DNA of 55,203 bases from Alphaproteobacteria bacterium (GTDB taxonomy: Bacteria > Pseudomonadota > Alphaproteobacteria > CAAGCB01 > CAG-977), in contig JAFVAT010000028.1 in the NCBI GenBank assembly GCA_017480385.1, positions 133,936 to 189,138 of the forward strand, read 5' to 3'. Shown here one piece after another: positions 24,078 to 34,238 of the stretch (within the stretch, counting starts at the first letter, position 1; each line of letters begins with the position of its first letter). Under the pieces are notes generated by a model, which saw nothing but the letters and a program-made list of their open reading frames with translations, ran no database searches and was not told where the DNA came from. The translations under genes were made by a program, and so were the position numbers.

Positions 24078-25884
24078 AACACTGCCTGAATTTTCCGAAC
24101 GCCGTAAATCCGGATTGACCGTTTGTTCCGCAGACGGACTTGAAACTGTGCGGGAGGGCACGGGAGTTTCTCCGGGAATCATTATCGGCAGAGCATTCGT
24201 TTATGACAGCCGCGAGCAATCTGTTCCTCAGTACCGTATTGATGAAAAAGACATTCCCGCCGAACAGGAACGGTTTTTGGCCGCGGTCCGCGAAACGATC
24301 GCTCAATTTGATTCCATTGTGGACCGTGCGAAAGGTGTTTTTGACGGTGATCCGCTTGATTCCCTGTTTGACGTTTACCGCTATATGCTGAAAGGCTCCC
24401 GACTGGTTCGGGGAGTATGCAGCCGCATTAAAACCAGCCAGCTGAATGCGGAAGCGGCCATACAAGGAGAAGTCGCCGCTATCGCAGATGTTTTTGCGGA
24501 AATGGACGATGTTTATATCTCGGCCAGAATAGACGATATCCGCAGCATCGGCAGCAAGCTTGTGCGGAACCTGTTGGCATCGGAAGGGGCTGAAAAGACA
24601 ATCTCTTTGCCAGAGAATGCCGTCATTATTTCCAATGACCTGAATGCTGCGGACACGGCCCTGCTCAATCTGCAAAAGATTTCCGCCTTTGTCACAACGG
24701 GCGGTTCAGCGCAAAGCCACGCCGCTTTATTAGCCCGTTCTTTAGGTTTGCCGGCAGTGGTCGGCATTCCCGATTTGATGCGTATTGCCCAAACGGGCGA
24801 CATCATCATTATCGACGGTTCCTATGGCAAGGTAATCCTGTGCCCGACACAAGAAAACATTACGCTTTACCGTAAATACCGGTCCGACTTCCTGCGCTGG
24901 AAACGTTCTCTTAAACGTCTTAAAAGCCAGCCATCCGTCACGTCGGATCAGGTATCTATTCAGTTAAAAGGCAACGTTGACCTGCCCCACGAGGTGGACT
25001 TTTTATTGCAGACCGGCGCCGACGGCATCGGATTAATGCGCAGTGAATATATGTTTTTGAACCGCCAGACGCTTCCCAGCGAAGACGAGCAATTTGAAAT
25101 TCTGCGTCAAATCGCTTCCCGGATAGAAGGAAAGCCGATTACTTTCAGAACTTTTGATGTCGGCGGCGATAAATGTCCTGATTCTCTGCACACCCCAAAA
25201 ACAGAAAATCCGGCGCTGGGGCTGCGCGGAATTCGTTATGCCTTAACGGCTTCCGATTTGCTGAAGACTCAGTTCCGTGCCGTTCTCAGGGCCTGCTGCT
25301 TCGGGGATATCCGCATTATGCTGCCTATGGTAACATCATTGGAAGAGGTCTTTCATGCCAAAGAAATGCTGCATCAATGCGCCGAGGATCTGAGAGCCGA
25401 AGGCATGGCTTTGCCTGATCGTCTGCCGTTGTTGGGCGTTATGATTGAAACGCCGGCAGCGGCTTTAGAAGCTGATGCGATAGCACGAAACTGCGATTTT
25501 CTGTCTATCGGAACAAATGATTTAATTCAATATACATTAGCCGTTGATCGGACAGACGCACTTGTCGCTTCTTTATTTAATCCTTTACACCCCTCCATTC
25601 TGAAACTAATAAAGAAAACGGCGGAAGCGGCCAATAAAGCGCAAATTCCCGTCAGCATTTGCGGAGAAATGGCTTCCAATCATCGCTATGCCGCCGTACT
25701 GATCGGCATGGGAATTCGGGAACTGTCCATGCCGGCCATTAACATACCCATGGTCAAGGAAAGAATCCGGTCTTTAAGCCTGACAGAAACAGAACATTTC
25801 GTTAACCGGCTTTTGTCATTAGAGATACCGGCTGATGTTGTCAGAACATTTAATGCTTTTGAAGAAGGAGCCAGATTCTATTAA
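24055..25884 (+). CDS. phosphoenolpyruvate-protein phosphotransferase (PTS enzyme I)
   Basis: Enzyme I takes phosphate from PEP and passes it to HPr. The protein is about 609 residues. The N-terminal phosphohistidine domain has the active-site His in TTGGSAQSHAALLARS. This reads one residue longer between GG and SH than the E. coli GGRTSH form. The C-terminal TIM-barrel has IGLMRSEYMFL, FRTFDVGGDK, LPMVTS and SIGTNDLIQY, and the catalytic Cys in PVSICGEMASN. There is no GAF domain, unlike PtsP. The start is uncertain: ATG 24055 and ATG 24034 both overlap the HPr gene; I chose the nearer one. Confidence 0.92.
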   Translation: MTNSTKIKTLPEFSERRKSGLTVCSADGLETVREGTGVSPGIIIGRAFVYDSREQSVPQYRIDEKDIPAEQERFLAAVRETIAQFDSIVDRAKGVFDGDPLDSLFDVYRYMLKGSRLVRGVCSRIKTSQLNAEAAIQGEVAAIADVFAEMDDVYISARIDDIRSIGSKLVRNLLASEGAEKTISLPENAVIISNDLNAADTALLNLQKISAFVTTGGSAQSHAALLARSLGLPAVVGIPDLMRIAQTGDIIIIDGSYGKVILCPTQENITLYRKYRSDFLRWKRSLKRLKSQPSVTSDQVSIQLKGNVDLPHEVDFLLQTGADGIGLMRSEYMFLNRQTLPSEDEQFEILRQIASRIEGKPITFRTFDVGGDKCPDSLHTPKTENPALGLRGIRYALTASDLLKTQFRAVLRACCFGDIRIMLPMVTSLEEVFHAKEMLHQCAEDLRAEGMALPDRLPLLGVMIETPAAALEADAIARNCDFLSIGTNDLIQYTLAVDRTDALVASLFNPLHPSILKLIKKTAEAANKAQIPVSICGEMASNHRYAAVLIGMGIRELSMPAINIPMVKERIRSLSLTETEHFVNRLLSLEIPADVVRTFNAFEEGARFY

Positions 25885-26789
25885 TGCAAATCGTGCAAAA
25901 TCCAAACCTAAATATCGGTTTAATTTGTATTGCCGTTTCAGTGATCCTTTTATTGATCACGGGATTTGTCGCGTTTATGCGCCGGGAGCTGCCGCCGTTT
26001 AAAACCGTTTTAATCAGCGGTTCCCCCGGCCAGGTATGGGCTTATTTAAAAGCGGGAAAAGCTGATCCGAACGCCTGTGATGAATTTGGGATTACGCCGT
26101 TAATGGTTGCGGCGGCTTACCATAAAAATCCCAAAATCACGGATATTCTTTTAAAAGCCGGCGCTTCAGTTTCGGCCAGAGATGCCGAAGGGTATACGGC
26201 CCTGTTTCACGCGATTAAAAACAATGCTCCCCGAAAAACAATGGAACTCCTGCTTAAGCGCGGGGCGGACCTTAATGACAGAACGAATGAGGGATTAACC
26301 GCTTTAACCGTGGCTTTGCAAAACAAGCCCTCTCCGGATCTGCTGATTTGGTTACAAAATCATGGCATGGACATTAACGAAAGGGACAGGAACGGATTAA
26401 CCCCGCTGATGTACGCGATTCAGGAAAACACTTCCGTTGAAGTCATCAAAACCTTGATTTTCTTAGGAGCCCGCGTTTCTGATCGGGCAGAGTTCGGCGT
26501 AACTCCGTTAATGCTGGCCGCCGGTAGAAACTTAAATCCGTATGTTATTATGACTTTATTGGAAAATAATGCCGGCATAGATGACCGCAGTGCGGAAGGG
26601 CTGACTCCATTAATGTATGCTGCCGCTTTTAACCCCAATCCGGGAATTGTCGAGCTTTTAATTGACTGCGGTGCCAAAATTCCGCTGCAGGACAAAGACG
26701 GCAATACTGCGCTGGATTATGCCAAGAAAAATTCAGCTTTATATGAAACGGAAACATACTGGCGGCTGAACAATCTGAGCTACGAATAA
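25884..26789 (+). CDS. membrane-anchored ankyrin-repeat protein
   Basis: The 301-residue protein has one N-terminal transmembrane helix (about residues 10-30), a short basic loop, then about seven ankyrin repeats with the TPLM/TALF...A..N...LL..GA pattern, recurring every 36 residues from about residue 64 to 290. The N-terminal anchor with cytoplasmic repeats suggests a protein-binding scaffold at the inner membrane. Its ATG overlaps the EI stop by one base, so it belongs to the same transcript as the PTS genes. The partner is unknown; a link to PTS or ChvG signalling is only inferred from coupling. Confidence 0.85.
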   Translation: MQIVQNPNLNIGLICIAVSVILLLITGFVAFMRRELPPFKTVLISGSPGQVWAYLKAGKADPNACDEFGITPLMVAAAYHKNPKITDILLKAGASVSARDAEGYTALFHAIKNNAPRKTMELLLKRGADLNDRTNEGLTALTVALQNKPSPDLLIWLQNHGMDINERDRNGLTPLMYAIQENTSVEVIKTLIFLGARVSDRAEFGVTPLMLAAGRNLNPYVIMTLLENNAGIDDRSAEGLTPLMYAAAFNPNPGIVELLIDCGAKIPLQDKDGNTALDYAKKNSALYETETYWRLNNLSYE

Positions 26790-28481: not shown

Positions 28482-28965
28482 AAGGATTTCCTATTCCCTT
28501 ATCCGCCAGAATTTTAATCTCCAACGTTTCCATTTCGGCAGCTTCAGCCTCTTCAATATGATCATAGCCGATTAAATGCAGCATACCATGCACAATCAAA
28601 TGGAACAAATGATCCGCGAAAGAACGGCCCTGCTCTTCCGCCTCGCGCTTTGTCGTTTCAAAAGCGACAACGATATCGCCCAACAGCATCGGATCCACGA
28701 TCGGTTCATTTTCGTCATCAAGGGCCGCAAAGGATAAAACGTTTGTCGGTTTGTCCACACCACGGTACTTTTTATTCAGACGATGAACAGCCTGATCATC
28801 TGTCAGCAGGACACTGGCCTCCGCCTGTTTTACGTCAATTTTTAAAGCACCGGCATTGCCTTGCTTCCATGCTGCGGAAGCTGCCTGTTTAACGAGTTTT
28901 CCGATATCGGGCAAAGCGTCCTTCCATTGCCCGTTTTCAATACGCAGATCGATTTTAACAGCCAT
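28471..28965 (-). CDS. ybeY: endoribonuclease YbeY
   Basis: YbeY is a zinc-dependent ribonuclease involved in 16S rRNA 3' maturation and ribosome quality control. The 164-residue protein has the signature H-x3-H-x5-H zinc site in HGMLHLIGYDH near residue 129 and the upstream TNVLSF(A) motif near residue 73. Its start overlaps the phoH stop by one base (TAATG), the standard coupling in this operon. Confidence 0.95.
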   Translation of the reverse strand: MAVKIDLRIENGQWKDALPDIGKLVKQAASAAWKQGNAGALKIDVKQAEASVLLTDDQAVHRLNKKYRGVDKPTNVLSFAALDDENEPIVDPMLLGDIVVAFETTKREAEEQGRSFADHLFHLIVHGMLHLIGYDHIEEAEAAEMETLEIKILADKGIGNPYDD

Positions 28966-29963
28966 TATCCGGCTAATCCTTTACGTGACGCATAACGTTT
29001 GTCATACGCTTTGACAATCGCTGAAACCAGTCCGTGGCGAACAACGTCTTTTTCCGTAAACGTCACAATGCCGATATCCTTGACATTGCGCAAAACGTCC
29101 AGCGCGTCAGACAATCCGGACTGCACGCCGCGCGGCAGGTCGGTCTGGCTCAGGTCACCGTTAATAACCATGCGGGAATTTTCGCCCATACGGGTCAAGA
29201 ACATTTTCATCTGCATCGGCGTTGTATTCTGCGCTTCGTCCAAAATAACCATTGCATTTGTCAGCGTGCGTCCTCGCATAAAAGCCAGCGGAGCCACTTC
29301 AATTTCGCCCAACTCAAGCTTTTTATCCACAACATCGCGCGGCAACATATCGTATAAAGCATCATACAAAGGACGCAGATACGGATCGATTTTTTCTTTC
29401 AAATCACCGGGAAGAAAGCCTAAATTTTCACCGGCTTCCACGGCGGGACGGGATAAAATAATCTTATCAATCTGCCCTTCAATCATCAAAGAAACCGCTT
29501 TGGCCACAGCTAAAAATGTTTTTCCTGTACCGGCTGGTCCCAATCCGAAAACCATTTCGTAATCACGCATTGCCCGCACATATTCGGCCTGTGTCTGAGA
29601 ACGCGGCTGAATATGACGTTTGCGCGTTTTCAATGTCAGATCTTCTTCTTCATTTCCGGCTGTTACTTTTTCTTTAGCACTCATCTTATATCCTTCGCTT
29701 ACATGCAGGGCATTATCAATGTCCGAATTGTCAATATCGCCTTTTTTCTTAGCTGCCGCATAAATTTTGTCCATAGCGGCAAAAGCGTGCTCAACCGCGT
29801 CTTCCGGTCCCTGAACCGTAATCTGGTTGCCGCGGGTTTTAATATCCACGCCCAGCTTTTTTTCCAACCGTTTCAGGTTATCGTTATGCGCCCCCAAAGC
29901 GATCAGCAACACTTGGTTATCGGCATACTCCTTAACACGCTGCAGCTCTTTTTTCTTTCCCAC
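28965..29963 (-). CDS. PhoH-family ATPase (YbeZ)
   Basis: This 332-residue PhoH-like protein is the usual partner of YbeY. It has an N-terminal KH-like region (about residues 20-75), then a P-loop ATPase domain with Walker A GPAGTGKT near residue 141 and Walker B MVILDEAQN near residue 240. A charged linker separates the two. In alphaproteobacteria the gene normally follows miaB directly; here the two are separated by about 2.1 kb containing an opposite-strand gene. The ATG start has a GGA-rich stretch upstream. Confidence 0.93.
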   Translation of the reverse strand: MGKKKELQRVKEYADNQVLLIALGAHNDNLKRLEKKLGVDIKTRGNQITVQGPEDAVEHAFAAMDKIYAAAKKKGDIDNSDIDNALHVSEGYKMSAKEKVTAGNEEEDLTLKTRKRHIQPRSQTQAEYVRAMRDYEMVFGLGPAGTGKTFLAVAKAVSLMIEGQIDKIILSRPAVEAGENLGFLPGDLKEKIDPYLRPLYDALYDMLPRDVVDKKLELGEIEVAPLAFMRGRTLTNAMVILDEAQNTTPMQMKMFLTRMGENSRMVINGDLSQTDLPRGVQSGLSDALDVLRNVKDIGIVTFTEKDVVRHGLVSAIVKAYDKRYASRKGLAG

Positions 29964-30146: not shown

Positions 30147-30335
30147 ATGTCATACGCTGAATTTTATAATGAACAGCAAGAATACCTGAACAGAGTCTCT
30201 CCGCAAGGAACAGAGGAAAGTATTCCTCATATTCAGGAAAAATATTACGGGGACACCTACACAACAAAAGTGCTGAATAGTGATGCCATTCAGGAACAGC
30301 TGGACATTATGCGTGCCGAAGCGGAAGTACGATGA
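30147..30335 (+). CDS. 5' fragment of an interrupted gene for a putative HExxH protein
   Basis: This 62-residue ORF (MSYAEFYNEQQEYLNR... ending AEAEVR) ends at an in-frame TGA at 30333-30335. The same reading frame continues without another stop through ESFNEKKAKGILISRIAGD into the 500-residue ORF downstream, so this is best read as the N-terminus of one gene of about 600 codons broken by a nonsense codon. TGA is used as a normal stop by hprK, aroC and other genes here, so recoding is unlikely. No signal peptide is present. Confidence 0.55.
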   Translation: MSYAEFYNEQQEYLNRVSPQGTEESIPHIQEKYYGDTYTTKVLNSDAIQEQLDIMRAEAEVR

Positions 30336-30455
30336 GAGTCCTTTAATGAAAAAAAAGCAAAAGGCATTCTGATTTCGCGGATTGCAGGCGACCAAACCAA
30401 AGAAGCCAAAATAGAATATGACCGCTATATCCCCGCGGAAAATCCGGAACGGCTA

Positions 30456-31958
30456 ATGGGAAATTTATCCAGTTTTTACAGCCAGATGACCGGAAAAAAA
30501 CTGAAAGAGGAATGTCATAAACCGGAAAACGAAGAAAAAATAAAAAGGCTGCTTGGCCGCGATGACATAGAGCACCTTTCTGAAATTGAACGAGCCGCCG
30601 CATTGACCGCTGTTCAAAAAATATCTTATATGATGGAAGAAAATATCGACCTGCGCAATACAAACACTTTGGCTCAATACCATATTGTTGCCGTTGAAAA
30701 CAAAGCGGCCAATCCGTTGGGATTTCACGCTTCGCGCATCAGCTCTCTGCCCGAAGAAACTCAGGAACAAATAAGGCCGCACGCGGACAAGCTTCTGTCT
30801 GTAACCCATGACGGCGCTTTATGGCACGAAATGACACACACTTTAGGAACGGATAACGAAAGCATTTGCGAAGGCTTCCGTTTCCTGAAAACATTACAGA
30901 AATACAAAGAACCCGCTCTGCTGCTGCCTGACTTTAACGCGCGTTTATACAACAATCTGTTCACATTGAATACTATCCGCAAAGACGCTGTTGCCGGTAA
31001 CAGGACTCTTGATGGCAATTTCACCTATTTGATGCCAGGAATGATCAAATATATGATGGACAATGCCGATTCTTTAGGTAAAGAACTTGAAGGAAAATCT
31101 GATGCGGAGATCATGGCTGAAACACAGAGGATCGTTAAAGAATGCTCTTACCCCAAAGAAACGGAAAAAGCTTTCCGAAATCTTGTAAAAAACTGCGAAG
31201 ACGAAAAAGCTTTGGCTGACAAGTTGCGGACTGTCTATGAAAACGGCGCAGACAATCCGGAAACGGGCGCCGTTTATCCGTTAGTCAGCGATATGTTTGA
31301 TGTGGCTAAAAAATTAGATTCTCAGGCTACGCCCGAAACATTTTTCAAACCGGGAAACTTTGCCGCTCAGGCCCGCAATACCGGCAAAGAAGCATCAAAA
31401 GAAGAACAAAACATCAACCTTTCCGAAGAAGAAAAAAAACATTATCAGGAACTGTACGATACGCTAAGAGAACAAAATCCGGACAAGACGGGAAAAGAGT
31501 TTGACGCTTTGTTTGCGCAGGCCATTGTAACAGACGCCTGGGCTCAGAAAGCAAAAGAAGAAGCCAAACTGGACGATCAGCAACAGGCGGCTGCCATTCT
31601 GTTTGATCGGAAGAAATCCGCAGAAATGACACAAAACATCAACGCCCTTATGAATCGCGCGCGCAATGCGGCCGATATTGTCAAAAAATACGGTCTCGAA
31701 TTTAACAAAAGACATGAAAAAATGAAGGCTGCCAAATCCGCTGCGAAAGAAAGCGCCCCGTTGCAGAAAAGATTGAATACAAGTCGGAAACAGAACAGAA
31801 GAAAATCTCCAAAAGAAAGCGCTTTACCGCAGAAAAAACTAATGAATATCCTGCGGAAGCAGAAAAAATCTTTAATGACAATACTGCGGATACCGGACAG
31901 CAAGAAATCTCCAACGGCTCAAATAACTGCAAACGTCAAAAAAGGTCGGACATATTAA
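30456..31958 (+). CDS. putative zinc metallopeptidase-like protein, main fragment of an interrupted gene
   Basis: The 500-residue ORF is the larger part of the gene interrupted by TGA at 30333; without the stop the frame is open from 30147. A zinc-binding HExxH motif lies in ALWHEMTHTLGTDNE at residues 121-135; the HExxHxxGxx spacing recalls metzincins, but residue 11 of the motif is Asn rather than His or Asp. The rest is largely helical and charged. The C-terminal 70 residues are very basic and contain a near-direct repeat. No signal peptide or membrane segment is visible. It lies on the opposite strand between phoH and miaB and has its own terminator. I cannot assign a family; the 5' extent used by the cell is unknown. 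Confidence 0.6.
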   Translation: MGNLSSFYSQMTGKKLKEECHKPENEEKIKRLLGRDDIEHLSEIERAAALTAVQKISYMMEENIDLRNTNTLAQYHIVAVENKAANPLGFHASRISSLPEETQEQIRPHADKLLSVTHDGALWHEMTHTLGTDNESICEGFRFLKTLQKYKEPALLLPDFNARLYNNLFTLNTIRKDAVAGNRTLDGNFTYLMPGMIKYMMDNADSLGKELEGKSDAEIMAETQRIVKECSYPKETEKAFRNLVKNCEDEKALADKLRTVYENGADNPETGAVYPLVSDMFDVAKKLDSQATPETFFKPGNFAAQARNTGKEASKEEQNINLSEEEKKHYQELYDTLREQNPDKTGKEFDALFAQAIVTDAWAQKAKEEAKLDDQQQAAAILFDRKKSAEMTQNINALMNRARNAADIVKKYGLEFNKRHEKMKAAKSAAKESAPLQKRLNTSRKQNRRKSPKESALPQKKLMNILRKQKKSLMTILRIPDSKKSPTAQITANVKKGRTY

Positions 31959-31963
31959 AATTC

Positions 31964-31988
31964 AGGGCGGAGATTTTCCGCCCTTTTT
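31964..31988 (+). terminator. intrinsic terminator
   Basis: A 7-bp perfect stem AGGGCGG / CCGCCCT with a 7-base loop is followed by a T-run (TTTT). It begins six bases after the stop of the HExxH-protein gene, which supports the reading frame that ends at 31958. Confidence 0.8.
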
Positions 31989-32083: not shown

Positions 32084-33415
32084 CTATAACAATTCACCGT
32101 CCAAAGTTGTTGCCGCCGTTTTGGCAATCCGAACACGGACGATTTGTCCCAGCATATTTTCCGGCGCTTTGACGACAACGTTTTGCATCTGCGGCGTATG
32201 CCCCAATAAATAACCGTCCTTTTTAGCTTTATCTTCCAGCAAAACCTTTGTTTCTTTGCCTAAAAATAACGCGTTATACGCCGCATGCTGTTCAATCAGC
32301 AAAGCTTGCAGCCGCTCCAGACGTTCCGTTTTGATTTCCTCCGGCACTTGATTTTTCATTGCGGCGGCAGGCGTTCCCGGTCGAGCGCTGTATTTAAATG
32401 AATATGACTGCGCAAAAGTCACTCTGCGCACCAATTCCATTGTCTGCTCAAAATCTTCGTCCGTTTCTTCGGGAAAGCCGACAATAAAATCGGAAGATAA
32501 CGCTATATCGGGACAAGCCGTCCGCAGCTTGGCAACAATTTCTTCGTATTCGGCGCATGTATAGCGACGATTCATCTTCTTCAAAATACGATCGGAACCG
32601 GATTGTATCGGCAAATGCAAATAAGGCATCACTTTGGGAATGTCACGATGCATAGCAATCATATCGTCCGTGAAATCAGACGGATAAGACGTTACATATC
32701 GAATACGTTCGATCCCGTCGATTTCCGCCACAGCCTTAACCAGACGGCTTAAGTCGCAAGGCTCTGCGTTCAAACCTTCCCCGTGCCAGGCATTCACATT
32801 CTGTCCCAAAAGCATTAAATCTTTCGTTCCGGTTGCAGCCAGCTGGCGCGCTTCCGCCACAATTTCCTTCAAAGAACGGGAATATTCCGCCCCGCGCGTA
32901 TAGGGCACAACGCAATATGAACAAAACCGGTCACACCCCTCCTGTATTGCCAGAAAAGAGGAGACACCATTCGATCTGGCTTGCGGCAGAGAATCAAATT
33001 TCGCCACCGCCGGAAATTCAACGTCGATAATCCGCTGTTTTCTTTTTTGTTCCAATCTTCTCAGCATTTCCGGCAAACGATGATAGGTTTGCGGTCCTAA
33101 AGCAATATCAACGAACTTCGCTCTGTTCATAAATTCTTCGGATTCGGCCTGAACGACACAGCCGGCGACGACTAAAATCAAGTCGCGTCCCTGTTTGCGC
33201 CGTTCCTCCTTCAGCGGTTTGAAGCGCCCTAATTCGGAAAAGATTTTTTCGGACGCCTTTTCCCGAATATGGCACGTGTTAAAAATAATCATATCGGCAT
33301 CAGCCGGATCCGTTGTTTCTTCGAATCCCAAAGCGCGCATAATATCGACCATACGCGCCGAATCATAAACATTCATCTGACAGCCGAAGGTTTTTATAAA
33401 AAGCTTTTTAGTCAC
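32084..33415 (-). CDS. miaB: tRNA-2-methylthio-N6-dimethylallyladenosine synthase
   Basis: MiaB is a radical-SAM methylthiotransferase acting on A37 of tRNAs. The 443-residue protein has the N-terminal UPF0004 domain with Cys in FGCQMNVYDS (residue 10), a second in TCHIREKAS and a third in AGCVVQAE. The radical-SAM cluster is EGCDRFCSYCVVPYTRG near residues 151-167, followed by the LLGQNVNAW segment. A C-terminal TRAM domain covers about residues 375-440. It probably once headed the phoH-ybeY-lnt operon. Confidence 0.96.
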   Translation of the reverse strand: MTKKLFIKTFGCQMNVYDSARMVDIMRALGFEETTDPADADMIIFNTCHIREKASEKIFSELGRFKPLKEERRKQGRDLILVVAGCVVQAESEEFMNRAKFVDIALGPQTYHRLPEMLRRLEQKRKQRIIDVEFPAVAKFDSLPQARSNGVSSFLAIQEGCDRFCSYCVVPYTRGAEYSRSLKEIVAEARQLAATGTKDLMLLGQNVNAWHGEGLNAEPCDLSRLVKAVAEIDGIERIRYVTSYPSDFTDDMIAMHRDIPKVMPYLHLPIQSGSDRILKKMNRRYTCAEYEEIVAKLRTACPDIALSSDFIVGFPEETDEDFEQTMELVRRVTFAQSYSFKYSARPGTPAAAMKNQVPEEIKTERLERLQALLIEQHAAYNALFLGKETKVLLEDKAKKDGYLLGHTPQMQNVVVKAPENMLGQIVRVRIAKTAATTLDGELL

Positions 33416-33431
33416 TGTTTTTCCAAATATT

Positions 33432-34238
33432 TTATTCAGCAGAAGTTTCGATTTCGTTTTTCAGCTTTTCCAATACGGGAATTTTCGAAGGAGTGAGATT
33501 CTTCGGCGTCAGCATCACCGGCTTGAACCAATCCGAAATCATCTGAAAGACGCTTTGTTTCTGATCATTGGGAAAATCCGCCGGCAATTTCGGATTAATA
33601 TCAGGCTTAAGATTATTCAAAAACAACTGCAAATCGGACTGGGAACGCTCATCTAACAATTCTTTTCCCGCCTCCAACAGCTGTTCATGCTGAAACTCAG
33701 CTATTTCCTTGTATGAAGGAGGAATGTTTTCCTGCAAAAAATCCAAAGAAAAATCGCCGACCAAAGGCAAAGAAATCGTACTTTTATCGTTTTTCAACAC
33801 GCTGTCGATTTTAGCATACATTGACGCCGCCGACGGATCCGAGGAAGGCCCGACATAATAAAACCAGCGCATATCGGCCTGTTCTTGTGCCAAATACATC
33901 CATTTATGCGCCATTTTCAGGTTTTTTTCGACTCCCTCCCCGCGCCAATACAGCAATCCCAGCTTGACCTGGGCCGGAGCATATCCGTTGCTGGCGCCGC
34001 GGGAAAAAAAGGCGGCGGCCCGCCTGAAATCCGGACGAGGCAGCCCCACGCCCTGATAGTACATTGTCCCCAGCTTATATTGCGCTTCCGGATCGTTTTC
34101 CTCTTCCGCGCAATAAATATACTGCATAAAGGCGATATTGATTTTTCCTGATTTTTCAGCCTGTTCCGCGAAAGCACAGGACGCCTCGGCCCTGCCCGAC
34201 ACAAATAATAAAATCAAAACAGCAAAACGAAACAGCAC
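33432..34238 (-). CDS. exported Sel1-repeat protein
   Basis: The 268-residue protein starts with a hydrophobic signal (MLFRFAVLILLFVSGRAEAS, likely cleaved after AEA). Two clear Sel1-like/TPR repeats follow, with the pattern A.Y.LG.MY..G.G...D...A..F..A (about residues 50-120), plus weaker helical repeats. Sel1 proteins mediate protein contacts in the periplasm or envelope. The C-terminal 110 residues have no obvious motif. The start is GTG at 34238. The gene is 16 bases upstream of miaB and may be cotranscribed with it. Confidence 0.8.
   Translation of the reverse strand: MLFRFAVLILLFVSGRAEASCAFAEQAEKSGKINIAFMQYIYCAEEENDPEAQYKLGTMYYQGVGLPRPDFRRAAAFFSRGASNGYAPAQVKLGLLYWRGEGVEKNLKMAHKWMYLAQEQADMRWFYYVGPSSDPSAASMYAKIDSVLKNDKSTISLPLVGDFSLDFLQENIPPSYKEIAEFQHEQLLEAGKELLDERSQSDLQLFLNNLKPDINPKLPADFPNDQKQSVFQMISDWFKPVMLTPKNLTPSKIPVLEKLKNEIETSAE

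What the first reader, a model, noticed from the sequence alone, without database searches (positions are those of the whole stretch)
30147..31958. Putative HExxH protein gene, broken by one in-frame TGA, inserted between phoH and miaB
A single frame is open from 30147 to 31958 except for TGA at 30333-30335, giving a protein of about 600 codons with HEMTHTLGTDN. The motif fits HExxHxxGxx but has Asn where metzincins have His or Asp. It lies on the opposite strand and separates miaB from phoH-ybeY-lnt, which are usually adjacent. I recognise no family. Either it is a recent pseudogene, or the downstream part is made from an internal start, or the stop is read through. No signal peptide is visible, so an intracellular or effector-type role is conceivable.
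Basis: partly seen in the sequence, partly recalled or inferred. Interest (0 to 1): 0.6.

Follow-up and report, generated by a model that had tools for sequence, protein, structure and literature searches.

The report
Freshly broken gut-bacterial HExxH gene
Between two housekeeping genes of an uncultured alphaproteobacterium sits a newly broken copy of an accessory gene for a probable zinc-dependent enzyme; intact relatives in related gut bacteria form a small family without a name, so the broken copy is ordinary and the family only mildly interesting.

Summary
One frame is open from 30147 to 31958 except for TGA at 30333-30335; it encodes HEMTHTLGTDN and lies on the opposite strand between phoH and miaB. 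A sister species in the same genus has an intact 564-residue copy (55% identical) at the same site, and its alignment runs straight across the stop. Intact homologues occur at 14 loci in 13 genomes, all alphaproteobacterial (or 'proteobacterium') MAGs, several from animal gut. They share HExxH-x2/3-GTxDExxCDxFxxLK and match no Pfam, NCBIfam, PHROG, PADLOC or PDB sequence family. A confident AlphaFold model (pLDDT 90) has its best, weak, fold matches among helical HExxH enzymes.

The window copy is best read as a very recent pseudogene. It also replaces three residues conserved throughout the family beside the active site, including the Asp at the possible third metal-ligand position (Asn here). 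In five related species the slot shows an intact gene, a nonsense copy, a deleted remnant, an empty site and an unrelated gene, so the gene is being lost. Recoding is unlikely (no tRNA-Sec found; TGA ends aroA). An assembly error cannot be excluded without reads. Function is inferred: a zincin-like hydrolase, possibly exported.

The parts
30147..30332 (+). 5' piece of the broken gene (62 codons), N-terminal part of the HExxH domain
   Evidence: 65% identical to the N terminus of the intact sister protein L004; the family profile A5 matches from the gene start across the stop
30333..30335 (+). in-frame TGA stop (codon 63)
   Evidence: read directly; the genome search reports '1 TGA' inside the match; aligned with a sense codon in the intact sister
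30336..31958 (+). rest of the frame (540 codons plus TAA): HExxH domain and C-terminal extension
   Evidence: 54% identical to L004, E 8.9e-166; open without further stops
30825..30869 (+). HEMTHTLGTDNESIC motif; family form HExxH-x2/3-GTxDExxC. Asn at 30855-30857 stands where the family has Asp; Glu at 30858-30860 is invariant
   Evidence: alignment A4; breaks of conserved columns
30456..30458 (+). first possible restart codon after the TGA (ATG); not conserved in the sister
31964..31984 (.). hairpin AGGGCGGA..TCCGCCCT after the gene, terminator-like; a similar stretch ends the remnant in G005 (90% over 40 bp)
28965..29963 (-). phoH, left border of the insertion slot
32084..33415 (-). miaB, right border of the insertion slot

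Best explanation
The window holds a very recently inactivated copy of an accessory gene that encodes a zincin-like (HExxH) metalloenzyme, most likely a soluble peptidase. Shown: the gene is orthologous to an intact gene at the same site in a sister species, its frame is cut once inside the conserved domain, and the same slot shows other losses in close relatives. Inferred: in intact members the two His of HExxH plus the Asp or Glu of GTxDE hold one metal ion, and the Glu of HExxH activates water to cut a peptide bond; the C-terminal extension would be a targeting or interaction tail. In the window lineage the product would stop after 62 residues, so no active enzyme is expected.
For: An intact 564-aa orthologue lies between phoH and miaB in G004. 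The alignment crosses the TGA. The slot has an internally deleted remnant in G005 and an unrelated 416-aa ORF in G003, and is empty in G006 (gap about 96 bp). In the miaB+phoH tree these five species group together, though some nodes are weakly supported, which implies a gene present in their ancestor and lost repeatedly. The window copy alone breaks family-conserved D236, K239 and E251 (L004 numbering) around the active site, whereas L004 alone breaks one, A256S. No tRNA-Sec: the three best Rfam matches are tRNA-Ser. aroA ends in TGA, and none of the eight neighbouring genes checked has a TGA inside. The family is coherent, with HExxH, T, E and C conserved across loci. AlphaFold model pLDDT 89.6, pTM 0.85; DPP III and PolE head the structural matches, and ACE, ACE2, M61 and M3 chains follow, all HExxH or HExxxH enzymes.
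Against: The 540 codons after the stop carry no further stop or frameshift, which is also what an assembly or base error would give. Overall divergence from L004 still shows constraint (pN/pS 0.26 before and 0.43 after the stop, against 0.07-0.09 for phoH and miaB; synonymous sites saturated). Structural Z of 6.8 is within what unrelated helical proteins reach, and Foldseek itself gave no match at E <= 0.001. No catalytic activity is known for any member.
Confidence: 0.65

Rival explanations
1. The TGA is an assembly or base-calling error, or a minority strain variant, and the gene is intact in the organism.
For: The genome is a fragmented draft of 40 contigs. Only one lesion in 603 codons; the frame and the terminator-like hairpin are otherwise kept.
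Against: The window copy also lost three family-conserved residues near the active site, against one in the sister, and related species show decay at this site. A true stop younger than roughly 0.05 substitutions per site would leave no second stop with P of 7% or more, so a single lesion is compatible with a real event.
Confidence: 0.25
2. Translation restarts after the stop (ATG 30456) and makes a 500-residue protein with the HExxH motif, which is the functional product.
For: The ORF 30456-31958 contains the whole motif region.
Against: The intact sister starts upstream and has no Met at this place. Family members carry the N-terminal region, which is modelled with high confidence as part of the same protein core (helices 3-15, 18-32, 64-77, strand 59-63).
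Confidence: 0.05
3. The TGA is read through or recoded (selenocysteine, or UGA as tryptophan).
For: The frame stays open on both sides and is conserved in sequence.
Against: The only tRNA-Sec match over the cut-off is a tRNA-Ser by ARAGORN, as are the next two. TGA is a normal stop in aroA and none lies inside the neighbouring genes checked. The aligned position in the sister is neither Cys nor Trp.
Confidence: 0.03
4. Function of the intact family: an effector exported by a type IV secretion system into a eukaryotic host cell or protist, where it cleaves a protein.
For: No signal peptide seen, sparse presence (10 of 152 genomes in one family), single genes in gaps between housekeeping genes, a positively charged C-terminal tail (mean net charge 3.3 over 25 residues against 0.13 in 97 other ORFs; members are homologous, so not independent), kept behind an inserted S41 peptidase domain in L045. 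VirB4 is present in 21 of 24 genomes tested.
Against: VirB4 occurs equally in genomes without the gene and is not found in two drafts with it. No recognised effector signature or eukaryote-like domain; no translocation data.
Confidence: 0.3
5. The HExxH protein is not a peptidase but an iron-dependent oxidase or another enzyme with a zincin-like fold, like PolE (DUF6421).
For: PolE (9j3g) is among the best structural matches (Z 4.4), and PolE is an HExxH Fe/pterin oxidase with structural homology to DPP III (PMC12614342).
Against: PolE's third ligand is spaced HE/DxxH-x21-23-E (PMC12614342), here x5-7. Peptidases outnumber it among the matches.
Confidence: 0.15

Closest known systems
Asp-zincins and mini-zincins (MEROPS subclan MA(D); PF06262, Acel_2062, motif HEXXHXXGXXD; PMC3890501)
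   Same: The sister copy (HEMTHALGTDD) and the G176 member (HETMHCLGTSD) fit HExxHxxGxxD letter for letter; presumably intracellular, no signal peptide, function unproven.
   Different: No Pfam match to PF06262 or to the M35 family; most members have one residue more before the Gly, one has Pro instead of it; the protein is about 340-600 aa and mostly helical, whereas Acel_2062 ends just after the motif; the window copy has Asn for the Asp.
Helical Glu-zincins: dipeptidyl peptidase III (M49), ACE (M2), oligoendopeptidase F (M3), M61
   Same: HExxH in a long helix followed by a helix with an acid (DExxCD; compare EECRAE of DPP III); best VIA-align matches, Z 6.8 to DPP III over 191-208 residues at 4.8-5.1 A.
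   Different: No sequence match; the acid is only 5-7 residues after the second His instead of about twenty or more; Z is in the range of chance for helical proteins.
PolE / DUF6421 (Fe and pterin-dependent oxidase, structural homologue of DPP III; PMC12614342)
   Same: HExxH plus a downstream Glu; structural match Z 4.4.
   Different: Spacing x21-23 to the Glu; mainly actinobacterial; no sequence match.

Membership tests
Unnamed alphaproteobacterial HExxH-GTxDExxC family (defined here) | Full-length match to the family profile | tested here: met
   A5 profile positions 5-403 of 404 match the window gene, E 1.4e-114; the window's own downstream piece is one of the 12 rows
Unnamed alphaproteobacterial HExxH-GTxDExxC family (defined here) | HExxH, T, D, E, C of the motif | tested here: inconclusive
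   HExxH, G, T, E, C present; D replaced by N in the window copy only
Unnamed alphaproteobacterial HExxH-GTxDExxC family (defined here) | Uninterrupted reading frame | tested here: not met
   TGA at 30333-30335
Asp-zincin / PF06262 mini-zincin or M35 | Sequence match to the Pfam family | tested here: not met
   No match for window pieces, sister or the 12 members of A5 up to E 10
Asp-zincin / PF06262 mini-zincin or M35 | HEXXHXXGXXD with Asp as third ligand | tested here: inconclusive
   Exact in the sister and G176; window has Asn; other members one residue longer; which acid binds metal is unknown
Metzincin | HEXXHXXGXXH/D and Met-turn | tested here: inconclusive
   Third residue is Asn here; a Y-x-M-P stretch is conserved downstream but was not shown to lie under the metal
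DPP III (M49) | HELLGH (HExxxH) and EECRAE motifs | tested here: not met
   HExxH and DExxCD with short spacing instead
DPP III (M49) | Fold | tested here: inconclusive
   Z 6.8, rmsd 4.8-5.1, 191-208 residues
Metallopeptidase | Zinc binding and peptide hydrolysis | not testable with these tools
   needs purified intact protein
Type IV secretion effector | Translocation into a target cell | not testable with these tools
   VirB4 present in the genome, export not shown
Selenoprotein / recoded UGA | tRNA-Sec in the genome | tested here: not met
   The three top Rfam matches are tRNA-Ser by ARAGORN; genome is 95% complete

The most novel reading that the evidence does not exclude
The intact family is a new class of short-linker zincin, with HExxH and the acidic ligand only 5-7 residues apart inside a helical DPP III-like fold, exported by a conserved VirB system of gut Alphaproteobacteria as an effector; its rapid gain and loss at the miaB-phoH slot reflects changing hosts.
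Probability: 0.15. Interest if true: 0.6.

Novelty: new member of a known kind. Interest (0 to 1): 0.27.

Why it matters
The broken copy itself is ordinary gene decay. The family it belongs to has no entry in the libraries searched and is limited, as far as searched, to little-studied alphaproteobacterial MAGs, several of them from animal gut. If it proves to be a secreted peptidase, it would be a handle on how these uncultured bacteria act on their hosts or on protists.

Tried and rejected
Pfam, NCBIfam, PHROG and PADLOC scans of the window pieces, the sister or other members gave nothing credible. PDB sequence searches: nothing credible. First AlphaFold job on a 2-row alignment was useless (pLDDT 38). 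Foldseek against PDB and viral models: no match at E <= 0.001. Plasmid and phage records: no homologue. Viral contigs: no full relative; one small protein with a similar motif, on two contigs. First whole-collection scan with the window piece alone found nothing; the alignment-based scan found the family. A 398-genome sample drawn from the phylum gave only the window genome. A 23-bp match elsewhere in the genome is chance, in a protein that looks like a chemotaxis receptor. A C-terminal frameshift was suspected because the tail is very basic, but the sister and other members also have basic tails, and codon-position composition gives no clear break before the last 150 bases.

Full report
OBSERVATION. 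The frame 30147-31958 on the + strand holds one internal stop, TGA at 30333-30335, and ends in TAA. The other two forward frames of the same stretch hold 35 and 32 stops, so a 540-codon open stretch is not chance. HEMTHTLGTDNESIC is encoded at 30825-30869. The gene stands between phoH (28965-29963, -) and miaB (32084-33415, -).

NEIGHBOURS IN SISTER GENOMES. The window lies in a 2.03-Mb draft genome, 95% complete, of a genus with six other held species. phoH and miaB lie 69-194 bp apart in G001, G002, G006, G009, G010 and G011, but 1390 bp in G005, 1400 bp in G003 and 1894 bp in G004; here the gap is 2124 bp. In G004 the gap holds an intact homologue, 564 aa, 55% identical, without stops. In G005 it holds an internally deleted remnant (matches to residues 57-75 and 410-453 of the sister, frame broken) and another ORF of 242 aa on the other strand. 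In G003 it holds an unrelated ORF of 416 aa with an M16-like HLIEH. A miaB+phoH tree groups G004+G003 (support 95) and G000+(G005,G006) (93), with 65 for the five together. The simplest history is one gene in their common ancestor, then inactivation, deletion, clean loss and replacement in different lineages. Replacement in G003 and clean loss in G006 are inferred from the tree; separate gains in G004 and in G000/G005 are less simple but not excluded.

THE STOP. The sister protein and the family profile align straight across the stop. The stop falls in the N-terminal part of the modelled domain. A restart at 30456 would remove residues that the model places inside that domain. Recoding is unlikely: the three best Rfam tRNA-Sec matches are tRNA-Ser genes by ARAGORN, aroA ends in TGA, and no neighbouring gene checked contains an internal TGA. 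About 3.3% of random substitutions in the downstream part would make a stop. With 0.05 neutral substitutions per site one expects 2.6 further stops; none is seen (P 0.07). So the inactivation is recent, or the stop is an error. The window copy breaks three columns that are invariant in the other members and kept in the sister (D236N, K239I, E251K), the sister alone breaks one (A256S); at a looser threshold 8 against 2. This leans towards relaxed constraint in the window lineage, but the numbers are small. pN/pS against the sister is 0.26 before the stop and 0.43 after it, against 0.07 and 0.09 for phoH and miaB; synonymous sites are saturated, so these are rough.

THE FAMILY. A whole-collection scan with the alignment of window, sister and G001 protein found 11 loci (two of them the G004 and G001 copies already held), and genome searches three more (G176, a second copy in G399, and G414): 14 intact loci in 13 genomes, all titled Alphaproteobacteria or proteobacterium where a title is shown, several from deer colon or rectum. 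In the family around G398, 10 of 152 genomes carry it. The members share HExxH-x2/3-GTxDExxCDxFxxLK; the Gly is Pro in G414. They sit as single genes beside housekeeping genes: beside ftsH in L049, L053 and L066, beside a gyrA-like gene in L044 and L045 (names by my reading of the sequences). No library names the family.

FOLD. With 12 rows AlphaFold gives a confident model of L053 (pLDDT 89.6, pTM 0.85). HExxH (194-198) lies near the end of helix 180-202; Asp205 and Glu206 stand at the start of the next helix. Foldseek finds nothing at E <= 0.001. VIA-align ranks DPP III first (Z 6.8, 191-208 residues, 4.8-5.1 A), then PolE, and further down ACE, ACE2, M61 and M3 enzymes. Each match alone is weak, and unrelated rows are mixed in, but the list is rich in HExxH enzymes. 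The spacing from the second His to the acid (x5 to the Asp/Asn or x6 to the Glu in the window and sister, one more in most others) is far shorter than in PolE (x21-23; PMC12614342) and closer to Asp-zincins HEXXHXXGXXD, whose mini-zincin member Acel_2062 also lacks a signal peptide (PMC3890501). A small protein on two viral contigs carries the same arrangement, HEIAHNVLDTLDERKCDLFA, 28 residues at 50% identity. The third ligand could be the Asp, lost in the window copy, or the invariant Glu; I cannot decide.

FUNCTION. The likeliest mechanism for intact members is a single-metal hydrolase, most probably a peptidase: inferred from motif and fold list, not shown. Effector-like traits: sparse occurrence, lone genes, no signal peptide, a basic C-terminal tail that is kept behind an inserted S41 peptidase domain in L045, and a VirB4 in 21 of 24 genomes. 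None is decisive, and VirB4 does not track the gene.

VERDICT. A confirmed observation; most likely a recent pseudogene of an unnamed zincin-like family that is being lost from this genus. Modest interest, mainly for the family.

Noticed in passing
L033:1157-2407 (G003, between phoH and miaB): A 416-aa ORF stands in the same slot; HLIEH and a downstream Glu resemble M16 peptidases (Pfam M16_C E 0.033, PDB zinc peptidase E 0.42, both weak). A second metallopeptidase-like gene in the same slot may be coincidence.
   Followed up: partly
L034 (G005, between miaB and phoH): Besides the remnant, a 242-aa ORF on the other strand with a Gly/Ala-rich stretch (GAFGELASGAAGCVPGLGTLASAG), function unknown.
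   Followed up: no
L045:1083-3734: The family member carries a Peptidase_S41 domain (E 4e-16) inserted before its C-terminal tail; the tail after the insert is nearly identical to that of L044, which lacks the insert.
   Followed up: partly
L083 and L084:4638-5111 (viral contigs): A 157-aa protein with HEIAHNVLDTLDERKCDLFA, the same HExxH-x7-E-RKCD arrangement as the family; no Pfam or PHROG match.
   Followed up: partly
L071 (G000:C6:17000-36900): VirB4-like gene followed by genes without Pfam names, next to ATP synthase genes atpH-atpA; a VirB4 is found in 21 of 24 related genomes.
   Followed up: partly
window 25884-26789 and 33432-34238: An ankyrin-repeat protein and a Sel1-repeat protein close to the finding, both of types often met among secreted or host-interacting proteins.
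   Followed up: partly
L046:7031-8108 and L048:2456-2965: Small proteins beginning MKLYHY or MKLYCY near the HExxH gene in two species, two in tandem in L046; no Pfam match to the copies searched.
   Followed up: partly
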